Assembly (NCBI GenBank): GCA_902826255.1
Contig: CADEEC010000021.1
Coordinates: 1 to 33,784 of the forward strand
Reading direction: 5' to 3'
DNA length: 33,784 nt
Source of the DNA: an uncultured Hyphomicrobiales bacterium
Lineage (GTDB): Bacteria > Pseudomonadota > Alphaproteobacteria > Rhizobiales > Hyphomicrobiaceae
Part shown: positions 12,399 to 13,958 of the stretch, in pieces
How the letters are laid out: each line of letters begins with the position of its first letter
Position numbering within the stretch: position 1 is the stretch's first letter
Notes under the pieces: generated by a model
Databases searched by the model: none
The model's input: only the letters and a program-made list of their open reading frames with translations
What the model was told of the DNA's origin: nothing
Translations under genes and position numbers: made by a program

Positions 12399-13907
12399 TC
12401 ATGCGGCTTGCGCCATGCCGCTGTCGCGGTTGAATGCCGTTATCATTTCGTCCCACTGCGGAACAAGGGCATGCAGGCCCTTCCAGAAATCCTGACGCCG
12501 GCGGCGATCGAAATCGGCGAGCTCGATACCCTGCTGCTCGACCCACGTGAAATAGCCGAGGTTGAAGATGCGGTCGCGCTCACGCTCTGTCGCCTCCAGC
12601 ACAAATTCTGTTCCGGCACCGAGAAGATGCTCGCCGGTCAACTCGGCGGCGAGCGCCTCGGTCATGGTGCCTTGGTTGTGGCGACGCTTCAGGTAGCGCG
12701 TGAGCTCGCTGCGATAAAGCTCGTGGCCGTCGGTAGCGACGGTGATAACGACGTCGTCCGACGTCAGCTTGGCCTGTTTGGCGAGCTTGATGGCGCCAAG
12801 CACGTTGGCGATCGACGATAGGCCGAGCCAGTCGAGCAGCTTGGCCTTCTCGGGTGTAAGACCAAGGCGGCGGGCGAGATAAGCGCGGCCTTCGTCCGTG
12901 TTGAACACGGCGCTCAGGCCGTCGGTCGCCTTGTCGCTGATGCCGATCACGTAGTCGGTGTTGGTAACGTTGTGAATCAGGGGCACGTGCTTGTCGCCGA
13001 TGCCCTGGATGTTGTGGTCGCCGTAGCCGTTGTTGAGCAGCGTCGGGCATTCGACAGCTTCGACGACAGCGATCCTGGTGCCGTGCCGCTCCTTCAACCA
13101 GTCGCCGGCGGCCAGCGTGCCGCCCGATCCGCTGGCGGAGACGAAGCCGGCAAGACGCAGGTTCGGCGACGACTTGCGCACCGTCTCAAAAATGCGCTCG
13201 AGCGCCGAGCCGGTGCAGCGCCAGTGCACGAGATAATTGCCGAACTCACTGAACTGGTTGACGATTTCGTTGGCTGGGTCGCGCTCAAGCTCGGCGCACT
13301 TGTCGTAGATTTCCTTGACGTTGGACTCGGTGCCATGGGTGCGGACGATGTCTTCGTCGGCCGATGTCACCCATTTGGCGAGCCAGTCGAAGCGCTCCTG
13401 GCTCATGCCGGCGGGCAGCACGGCGACGCCGCGGCAGCCGAGGATGCGCGAGATGGCAACGCCGCCGCGGCAGTAGTTGCCGGTCGACGGCCACACCGCG
13501 CGCTGCGTGGTCGGATCGAAACGGCCGGCAGCAAGCCGCGGCGCGAGACAGGCGTAGGCCGCCAGTACCTTGTGGGCGCGGATCATCGGGAAGGTCGCGC
13601 CAACGCCGAGCACGATGCGCGCCTTGACGCCGGTCAAGCTCTCGGGAAGCTCGATATAGGCCGGCACGTCAGCCTGCTCGGTGCGGTTCCAGCTGTTGTA
13701 CCAATTCACCCGGTAGAGGTTGGCGGCGAGGGCCGCGTCGGGATCGACCCCAGCGAGCGCGGCGCGCGTTGAGGCAGGAGCTGAGTGGGGCTCGGCAAGC
13801 TCGGTGAAGGTTGGAAGGCGGACACCCTTCTCGCGCAGACGCGCCACGGCCCGCGCACGCACGGAGGCATTGTCGACACGAACCGGAAAATCGAATGGAC
13901 TGGCCAA
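12399..13907 (-). CDS. Fold-type II PLP-dependent enzyme (cysteine synthase/ammonia-lyase-like)
   Basis: About 502 residues, longer than ordinary cysteine synthase (about 310). The likely Schiff-base lysine is in [13 protein letters not shown] (K113 from this start), followed by a substrate loop [10 protein letters not shown] and the phosphate-binding [14 protein letters not shown]. This is the order of TrpB-family enzymes, which do beta-elimination or beta-replacement. I do not recognise the exact function; removal of ammonia or another beta-substituent from an amino-acid intermediate is plausible. I prefer the TTG start at 13907: AGGGAAAG lies upstream, and the alternative ATG at 13946 has no ribosome-binding site and would leave only 12 bases to the operator at 13959. 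First gene of a four-gene operon with the CoA-transferase and F420-type oxidoreductase. Confidence 0.8.
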
Positions 13908-13958
13908 GGCGCCTGCTTTCCCTGAGCAAGGGCGTGGACGCCCCATATTGTTTCTATT

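What the first reader, a model, noticed from the sequence alone, without database searches (positions are those of the whole stretch)
12399..13946. Unassigned long TrpB-like PLP enzyme in the F420 operon
About 500 residues with lysine motif RAHK, substrate loop [10 protein letters not shown] and GSGGT phosphate loop. It is clearly longer than cysteine synthase and does not match a function I recognise. Its operon with a CoA-transferase and F420-type oxidoreductase points to a specific lyase step.
Basis: partly seen in the sequence, partly recalled or inferred. Interest (0 to 1): 0.5.

Follow-up and report, generated by a model that had tools for sequence, protein, structure and literature searches.

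The report
Unnamed diaminopropionate-lyase-like enzyme in F420 operon
A large, unnamed family of vitamin-B6 enzymes, built like cysteine synthase, sits in a conserved bacterial operon that probably breaks down a nitrogen-ring compound with the rare cofactor F420; there the gene seems to do the same job as a known enzyme that destroys the amino acid 2,3-diaminopropionate.

Summary
In detail: 12399-13946 (-) is a 515-aa PLP enzyme, CysK-like rather than TrpB-like and far below every curated cut-off. It belongs to a large unnamed family (585 relatives in one capped scan). Three kinds of neighbourhood recur. (1) With a second PLP enzyme (PLP2), in part inside reductive uric-acid clusters, where 2,3-diaminopropionate (DAP) is the published late intermediate. 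(2) With DAP ammonia-lyase (DAPAL/YgeX). (3) The window's type: Liv transporter, F420 synthesis, this enzyme, glutaconate-CoA-transferase-like AB, F420 LLM reductase, 5-oxoprolinase PxpABC or an M20 hydrolase, and a quinoline-oxidoreductase-like molybdenum hydroxylase. Among 397 genomes of the order, the 12 assessable type-3 clusters carry this enzyme (7), DAPAL (1) or both (4) in the stretches read. Six Sinorhizobium plasmids carry the M20 version of the operon with DAPAL and without this enzyme. No position is conserved differently between types 1 and 3. Best reading: a CysK-derived lyase that cleaves DAP, or a close beta-amino-substituted alanine, at the end of an undescribed F420-dependent N-heteroarene pathway. 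Operon and exchange are shown; reaction, substrate and stereochemistry are inferred.

The parts
12399..13946 (-). PLP1: CysK-fold PLP enzyme, 515 aa (possible true start TTG at 13907)
11405..12376 (-). CoATA: class I CoA-transferase alpha subunit; nearest solved structure glutaconate CoA-transferase 1poi_A (E 1e-39)
10630..11412 (-). CoATB: CoA-transferase beta subunit (260 aa, ATG at 11412, overlaps the end of CoATA); nearest 1poi_B (E 2e-47); FEGG aligns with VESG of GctB, so the Glu recalled as catalytic is kept
9633..10586 (-). LLM: TIGR03619-type F420-dependent luciferase-like oxidoreductase (198.6 bits, cut-off 166.9)
8298..9476 (-). Liv-type ABC transporter substrate-binding protein
4837..8231 (-). 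Liv-type ABC permeases and ATPases (LivH 7359-8231, LivM 6319-7362, LivG 5528-6322, LivF 4837-5541)
14016..16418 (-). CofGH fused FO synthase (1129 bits, cut-off 1018)
16415..17095 (-). CofC (158.9 bits, cut-off 105)
17092..18075 (-). CofD (291 bits, cut-off 257)
18072..18839 (-). CofE (266.6 bits, cut-off 180.7)
18849..19499 (-). NpdG NADPH:F420 reductase (186.5 bits, cut-off 149.8)
19496..20272 (-). PxpA, 5-oxoprolinase subunit (323.8 bits, subfamily cut-off 226)
20342..21106 (+). PxpB (184.7 bits, cut-off 145.6)
21107..22165 (+). PxpC-like (over the 5-oxoprolinase/urea amidolyase domain cut-off, 275 of 230; under the PxpC equivalog cut-off, 226 of 500)
22238..23008 (+). GntR/UTRA regulator, kept with the operon
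23125..25470 (+). CoxL-like molybdenum hydroxylase large subunit; nearest structure quinoline 2-oxidoreductase 1t3q_B (8e-145); loop PYRGVART, not the CO-dehydrogenase loop
25467..26276 (+). CoxM-like FAD subunit
26273..27502 (+). CoxS-like 2Fe-2S subunit fused to a CoxG domain (in-frame ATG at 26273, overlapping the CoxM stop)

Best explanation
The enzyme (PLP1) is a CysK-fold, PLP-dependent lyase of an unnamed family. In the window it probably cleaves 2,3-diaminopropionate (DAP), or a very similar beta-amino-substituted alanine, to an aminoacrylate and then pyruvate plus ammonia. It would do so as the last step of an F420-dependent route that degrades an N-heteroaromatic carboxylate. Proposed order (inferred): uptake by the Liv transporter; CoA activation by the GctAB-like pair; hydroxylation next to a ring nitrogen by the CoxLMS hydroxylase; reduction of the ring by the LLM enzyme with F420H2, made by Cof proteins and recycled by NpdG; opening of the cyclic amide or urea by PxpABC (elsewhere an M20 hydrolase); PLP1 on the released amino acid. 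Imidazole-4-carboxylate fits all parts best (2-oxoimidazolidine-4-carboxylate is an aza-analogue of 5-oxoproline and would give DAP + CO2); pyrazine-2-carboxylate is second. Shown: gene content, synteny, family, predicted fold, exchange with DAPAL. Inferred: reaction, substrate, stereochemistry, order of steps.
For: (a) Exchange in one operon: 6 of 6 Sinorhizobium plasmid loci read in full (of 12 with this LLM) hold the M20 version of the operon with DAPAL and no PLP1. In 397 genomes of the order there are 15 CoATA hits besides the window's: 1 is a lone CoA-transferase, 2 end at the contig edge, and the other 12 have, in the stretches read (up to 20 kb each side), PLP1 only (7), both (4) or DAPAL only (1). 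(b) Elsewhere PLP1 sits in reductive uric-acid clusters: of 48 PLP2-type loci in the tree, 18 hold at least one and 11 at least two kinds of such genes; DAP is an intermediate of that pathway (PMC12507026). (c) Of 18 PLP1 genomes, the 13 with PLP2 show no DAPAL match below 1e-14; the 5 without PLP2 all have a DAPAL-like protein at 1e-42 to 3e-87. (d) No position is conserved differently between 24 CoAT-type and 48 PLP2-type sequences (85% and 80% thresholds; some near-copies among the 24). (e) D318 in GIGDKH aligns with Asp232 of Fn1055, a beta-replacing cysteine hydroxyl lyase. (f) CoxL ortholog (62% or more) in 14 of 16 distinct CoAT-type genomes against 1 of 5 PLP1-less controls.
Against: No assay and no substrate. 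DAPAL and PLP1 occur together in 4 of 12 clusters, in 5 of 18 genomes searched, and in 2 of 16 CoAT-type handles (13 distinct genomes), in one of them 2.3 kb beyond CofGH; so they are not strict alternatives and may differ in stereochemistry or step. Two of the 12 clusters (G934, G863) are genomes seen before (G079, G080), and G079 has a DAPAL on another contig. 30 of 48 PLP2-type loci show no uric-acid gene in the stretch held; many Actinobacteria have PLP1-PLP2 beside housekeeping genes. The window is not the uric-acid pathway itself: in 7 PLP1-bearing genomes of its genus and family SsnA gives only weak matches, 0 of 7 over cut-off. Four of 27 PLP1-less relatives have CofH. The CoA-transferase step is not explained by DAP chemistry. 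The six Sinorhizobium loci are close relatives and count as about two events.
Confidence: 0.5

Rival explanations
1. PLP1 is a lyase for another beta-substituted alanine (albizziin/3-ureidoalanine, cysteine from a thiazole-4-carboxylate, an S- or O-substituted alanine), and DAPAL merely shares part of that substrate range.
For: CysK-like active site; D318 matches Asp232 of a cysteine-specific enzyme; TauE/SafE exporters near PLP1 on two plasmids; 5-oxoprolinase is recalled to open 2-oxothiazolidine-4-carboxylate to cysteine.
Against: The repeated partners are DAPAL and uric-acid genes, both tied to DAP; I saw no sulfur gene recur in the window's operon type in the stretches annotated (these searched mainly for the genes of the window and of the uric-acid pathway).
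Confidence: 0.25
2. PLP1 does not end the pathway but prepares DAP for a second PLP enzyme: it either racemises D- to L-DAP or replaces the beta-amino group by water to give serine, which PLP2/DAPAL then deaminates.
For: Frequent pairing with a second fold-II enzyme: PLP2, DAPAL-like, or a threonine-synthase-like protein in the distant subfamily; the 48 PLP2 genes begin between -17 and +54 bases of the PLP1 stop, 15 of them at -4 (the script chose the start codon nearest the stop); D-specific hydrolases recognised by eye in some of those clusters; Fn1055 is a water-adding enzyme.
Against: In 7 of 12 assessable CoAT-type clusters no DAPAL or PLP2 was found in the stretches read; 11 of 13 distinct CoAT-type genomes lack DAPAL, and PLP2 gave only three weak matches (65-68 bits) in the 21 genomes; operons with DAPAL and no PLP1 exist.
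Confidence: 0.15
3. It is an ordinary cysteine synthase paralogue carried along in the operon.
For: Same fold and overlapping motifs.
Against: 72 bits against a cut-off of 351; N- and C-terminal extensions with a TWVEQQG motif kept in 18 of the 19 sequences shown, TWVEQRG in the other; operon context over several families and two classes.
Confidence: 0.04

Closest known systems
O-acetylserine sulfhydrylase / cysteine synthase (CysK) and CBS, PLP fold type II
   Same: Fold (the 50 rows shown: VIA-align Z 31.9-35.7 over 287-323 residues, rmsd 1.9-3.1); lysine, STGN loop, NQF, GSxGT, QGIG and S377 positions.
   Different: About 500 aa, against 290-350 for most cysteine synthase chains listed; 16-29% identity in the rows; GIGDKH where the CysK sequences shown have GIGAGF; extra helices at both ends with TWVEQQG; scores a fifth of the curated cut-off.
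Fn1055 cysteine (hydroxyl) lyase, PDB 5b53/5b55
   Same: Asp at the position of D318; the D232N mutant chain differs exactly there in the alignment.
   Different: 21% identity; a chain of 340 residues; its genomic setting was not examined.
Diaminopropionate ammonia-lyase (DAPAL, YgeX)
   Same: Present without PLP1 in an otherwise matching operon; its recorded reaction is DAP to pyruvate and ammonia (PMC12507026, abstract).
   Different: Different branch of fold type II (its other model hits are mostly threonine dehydratases); no DAPAL model matches the window protein.
Reductive uric-acid pathway (XdhD-YgfK-SsnA-HyuA-YgeW-YgeY-YgeX; F420 LLM variant proposed for Chloroflexota)
   Same: Molybdenum hydroxylase, reductase (F420 LLM in some), cyclic-amide hydrolase, DAP lyase; PLP1 relatives lie in such clusters.
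   Different: Window operon has no SsnA, HyuA, YgeW or YgeY; it has a GctAB-like CoA-transferase and 5-oxoprolinase; its LLM is only 25-28% like those that tblastn found near SsnA.

Membership tests
Cysteine synthase (TIGR01139/TIGR01136) | Curated score cut-off | tested here: not met
   72.2 of 351 and 66.1 of 344 bits
Cysteine synthase (TIGR01139/TIGR01136) | CysK fold and PLP-site residues | tested here: met
   AlphaFold2 pLDDT 92.1, pTM 0.92; Foldseek and VIA-align; motif alignment
Cysteine synthase (TIGR01139/TIGR01136) | Sulfhydrylase activity on O-acetylserine | not testable with these tools
   needs an assay
Tryptophan synthase beta (TrpB) | Match to a TrpB model | tested here: not met
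   no TrpB model among NCBIfam hits at E 0.001 or better
Diaminopropionate ammonia-lyase (TIGR01747/NF006058) | Sequence family membership | tested here: not met
   no DAPAL hit for the window protein at E 0.001; three distant relatives only at 16-26 bits against cut-offs of 274-532
Diaminopropionate ammonia-lyase (TIGR01747/NF006058) | Place in an operon that releases DAP (works like, not is) | tested here: inconclusive
   exchange with DAPAL in Sinorhizobium and G845 operons supports it, but both occur in 4 of 12 clusters and DAP release is itself inferred
Diaminopropionate ammonia-lyase (TIGR01747/NF006058) | DAP to pyruvate + 2 NH3 | not testable with these tools
   needs an assay
Cysteine (hydroxyl) lyase Fn1055 | Asp232 that sets specificity | tested here: met
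   D318 aligned with it, invariant in the 50 aligned sequences
Cysteine (hydroxyl) lyase Fn1055 | Cysteine to serine activity | not testable with these tools
   needs an assay
Reductive uric-acid pathway | SsnA in the genome | tested here: not met
   0 of 7 PLP1-bearing genomes of the window's genus and family over the SsnA cut-off; best 172 of 455 bits
Glutaconate CoA-transferase (GctAB) | Similarity and the Glu of the beta subunit | tested here: met
   1poi_A 1e-39, 1poi_B 2e-47; E aligned; its catalytic role is recalled
Glutaconate CoA-transferase (GctAB) | Glutaconate as substrate | not testable with these tools
   needs an assay
Aerobic CO dehydrogenase (for CoxL) | Cys-bearing loop AYRCSFR (recalled) | tested here: not met
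   window reads PYRGVART; CODH models under cut-off, 549 of 950 and 462 of 991

The most novel reading that the evidence does not exclude
A previously undescribed F420-dependent aerobic pathway of Proteobacteria, on chromosomes and on Sinorhizobium symbiosis plasmids, dismantles an N-heteroaromatic carboxylate (imidazole-4-carboxylate type) to 2,3-diaminopropionate. PLP1 founds a CysK-derived class of diaminopropionate lyase that evolved independently of DAPAL, and it also serves many reductive uric-acid clusters, where a whole-Pfam (PF00291) neighbourhood count cannot tell it from YgeX.
Probability: 0.33. Interest if true: 0.78.

Novelty: new variant of a known kind. Interest (0 to 1): 0.6.

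Why it matters
A 2021 review states that no F420-dependent reductase or F420-reducing dehydrogenase had been investigated by experiment in F420-producing bacteria outside the Actinobacteria and that experimental work is needed on its role there (PMC8498797, section 23). This operon gives a concrete, testable role: F420 synthesis and NpdG lie with one catabolic gene set in several alphaproteobacterial families and a Burkholderiaceae genome. The counterpart on Sinorhizobium plasmids matches gene functions that a genome-wide association study linked to nodule competitiveness (PMC8407117, passages); the match to one operon is my inference, and its authors left the role open. And a large PLP family that current models do not name gets a likely substrate class.

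Tried and rejected
Rejected: TrpB (no model hit); OrtB thiolase (the model is in the library but is not among the hits listed for PLP1 or two of its distant relatives, and the third relative's list is cut at 25 of 29; it hit a threonine-synthase-like neighbour weakly); plain cysteine synthase (cut-offs); the IpdAB structures (name recalled) as nearest CoA-transferase (present, but behind GctAB); CO dehydrogenase for CoxL; the window as a uric-acid cluster. My own intermediate idea that PLP1 simply replaces YgeX everywhere was rejected: PLP2 and DAPAL are the pair that alternate in PLP1 genomes of the other types, while in the CoAT type PLP1 and DAPAL give an either-or-both pattern. Pyrrole-2-carboxylate as substrate (giving 5-oxoproline and glutamate) was considered and set aside because it leaves no work for PLP1 or DAPAL. 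A search for residues that separate CoAT-type from PLP2-type sequences found none at the thresholds used. OplAH near CoxL in L151 stands in for Pxp in one genome only and may be chance. The threonine-synthase-like partner in L136 scores over a threonine-synthase cut-off and may be just that. Paper searches: searches found 0 papers; two searches listed none that looked relevant; led to the uric-acid papers, 62 to a review naming Fn1055, 85 to the F420 review and 97 to the association study. No paper naming this family, or this operon as a pathway, was seen in these searches. No structural match is reported for the C-terminal part of PLP1 beyond about residue 445; that part was barely tested.

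Full report
The gene. Window 12399-13946 on the minus strand encodes 515 aa, here called PLP1. Pfam finds PALP (52 bits). NCBIfam finds only cysteine-synthase and CBS models, none near its cut-off (best 72 of 351). The nearest solved sequences are cysteine synthases. AlphaFold2 on a 50-row alignment gives pLDDT 92.1 and pTM 0.92; Foldseek and VIA-align place about residues 53-445 on the CysK/CBS fold. K126, STGN 154-157, NQF 230-232, GSxGT 273-277, QGIG 314-317 and S377 fall in or beside the CysK motifs in the alignments (their roles in CysK are recalled). Two features are its own: GIGDKH (D318-K319-H320 invariant over 50 sequences) where the CysK sequences shown have GIGAGF, and a C-terminal extension with TWVEQQG. 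D318 aligns with Asp232 of Fn1055; the mutant chain D232N differs at exactly that point. [quoted passage not shown]

The family. A tree of 82 sequences shows coherent types by neighbourhood: 17 with the CoA-transferase (2 changes on the tree), 48 with an adjacent second PLP gene (PLP2), and smaller groups with a DAPAL-like gene or none of these. In Chloroflexota, 32 of 221 genomes have a PLP1 homologue; the 7 close ones all carry PLP2 next to it, while of the other 25 only three have a weak match. DAPAL is in 3 of the 32, all three among those 25. A distant subfamily in L136 and L137 stands with carbamoyltransferases ATC and OTC, carbamate kinase and a threonine-synthase-like gene.

Link to diaminopropionate. 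Of the 48 PLP2-type loci, 18 hold at least one gene like those of the reductive uric-acid pathway and 11 hold two or more kinds (tblastn): L021 and L024/L051 (SsnA, XDH, ATC, OTC, with YqeA in L021), L036, L043, L044, L049, L055, L062, L073, and L081, which reads PLP1-PLP2-YgeY-YgeW. The other 30 show none in the stretch held. In E. coli that pathway ends with DAP, cleaved by YgeX (PMC12507026: abstract and sections 5, 8, 9 and 13 read). In its Figure 3 legend YgeX is marked by PF00291 alone, so PLP1 and PLP2 could be hidden in that count. Of 18 PLP1 genomes searched for DAPAL, the 13 with PLP2 show nothing below 1e-14, and the 5 without PLP2 all have a DAPAL-like protein (1e-42 to 3e-87; one is over the TIGR01747 cut-off, and another passes the NF006058 cut-off; in L070's genome it lies far from PLP1). 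In L019's genome the DAPAL-like gene lies between XDH and LLM genes, about 13 kb from PLP1, which stands between SsnA and HyuA.

The window's operon. The order CoxSG-CoxM-CoxL / GntR / PxpC-PxpB / PxpA-NpdG-CofE-CofD-CofC-CofGH-PLP1-CoATA-CoATB-LLM-Liv transporter holds, as far as contigs reach, in G011, G005 and G001. G002 has it without the Cox genes, which lie on another contig; in G004 only PLP1-CoATA-CoATB-LLM-Liv are together. CoATA is rare (5 of 338 alphaproteobacterial genomes, window included) and in all five it follows PLP1 and precedes CoATB and LLM. The CoxL ortholog (62% or more) is in 14 of 16 distinct CoAT-type genomes; G006 (76% complete) and G094 (39%) lack it; of five PLP1-less controls only G008 has it (handles with identical coordinates counted once). 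CofH is in all 7 PLP1-bearing genomes of the genus and family and in 4 of 27 others. In a Burkholderiaceae genome the Cox-GntR-Pxp-NpdG-Cof block lies on the same contig as PLP1-CoAT-LLM, about 23 kb away, with a DAPAL 2.3 kb beyond CofGH. CoxL is nearest to quinoline 2-oxidoreductase and lacks the CO-dehydrogenase loop.

The wider test. In 397 genomes of the order, 16 have CoATA. Of the 15 besides the window, G857 is a lone CoA-transferase, and G947 and G958 end at the contig edge beside CoATA. The other 12 show PLP1 in 11 and DAPAL in 5: PLP1 only 7, both 4, DAPAL only 1, counted in stretches of up to 20 kb each side, shorter where contigs end. Two of the 12 (G934, G863) are the same genomes as G079 and G080, met before (same contig number and length); G079 has a DAPAL on another contig. 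The ring-opening slot also alternates: leaving out G857, each of the 14 clusters has PxpA or an M20 hydrolase, Pxp only 3, M20 only 10, and 1 with M20 plus a more distant PxpA. NpdG, CofD, CofGH and LLM are in 14 of 14; CoxL at 63% or more in 13 of 14.

Sinorhizobium. Twelve Sinorhizobium plasmids hold this LLM, and no Sinorhizobium plasmid record matched PLP1 at 1e-30 (2 of 72,556 plasmid records, a Rhizobium and a Bosea). Six loci read in full carry Liv-NpdG-CofE-CofD-CofC-CofGH-CoATA-CoATB-LLM-M20-CoxL-CoxM-CoxSG-SBP-DAPAL with GntR divergent; PLP1 0 of 6, DAPAL 6 of 6, whole in five and split in strain R28. Chromosomes of these strains were not searched. A genome-wide association study of nodule competitiveness lists the same gene functions for strains GR4, KH35c and KH46, including diaminopropionate ammonia-lyase, GctA and GctB, F420 genes and a 'caffeine dehydrogenase' (PMC8407117, passages); that these are this operon is my inference.

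Mechanism. Shown: the operon, the fold (predicted), the motifs, the alternation. Inferred: PLP1 forms an external aldimine on K126 with a beta-amino-substituted alanine, eliminates the beta group, and releases aminoacrylate that becomes pyruvate; D318 activates water or protonates the leaving amine. Upstream, a heteroaromatic carboxylate with the N-C(COOH)-C-N skeleton is activated by CoAT, hydroxylated by CoxLMS, reduced by LLM with F420H2, and opened by PxpABC or by M20. Because no position is conserved differently between CoAT-type and PLP2-type enzymes, the same substrate class is likely in both settings. The two-enzyme cases may reflect D and L forms.

Limits. No activity is known. DAPAL and PLP1 coexist in several genomes. 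The role of the CoA-transferase is guessed. The substrate is a proposal from parts. Neighbour names without a domain search are by eye. Sinorhizobium loci are few independent events.

Verdict. A real and interesting gene, a new variant of a known kind: a CysK-derived enzyme that probably works like a DAP lyase but is not a member of the DAPAL family, within an F420 operon whose whole pathway I did not find described in the open-access papers searched.

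Noticed in passing
L156, L157, L165-L169 (Sinorhizobium plasmids): The PLP1-less version of the window's operon matches the gene functions that a GWAS tied to nodule competitiveness; a plant-derived ring compound could be the substrate.
   Followed up: partly
L157:2677-3867: The DAPAL gene of S. meliloti R28 is split into two ORFs while four other S. meliloti strains and S. fredii GR64 have a whole 397-aa ORF.
   Followed up: partly
L136, L137, L021, L062, L073: ATC-OTC-carbamate kinase clusters with two PLP enzymes suggest a uric-acid variant that phosphorolyses both ureido groups.
   Followed up: no
L023, L029, L030, L032, L037, L041: A class I aminotransferase sits upstream of PLP1 in these Chloroflexota/Actinomycetota loci; its role is unclear.
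   Followed up: no
L089 and L161: TauE/SafE exporter plus gamma-glutamyltransferase-like gene recur near PLP1 and a DAPAL-like gene (Bosea) and near a CoxL relative (Azospirillum).
   Followed up: no
G008 (L153, L155): A family member without PLP1 has the CoxL ortholog (81%) beside a Liv transporter, and F420 genes on another contig; possibly a decayed or alternative version of the pathway.
   Followed up: partly
L072: Record titled Bifidobacterium breve clusters tightly with uncultured actinobacteria (L066, L067) in the PLP1 tree; probably a mislabelled MAG.
   Followed up: no
L131:10900-17000: Translations show many short repeats spaced like a CRISPR array about 1 kb downstream of a distant PLP1 homologue.
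   Followed up: no
window 305-4813: Separate plus-strand cluster: HpcH/HpaI aldolase, Rieske oxygenase, ferredoxin reductase, glyoxalase-fold protein; looks like an aromatic degradation set.
   Followed up: no
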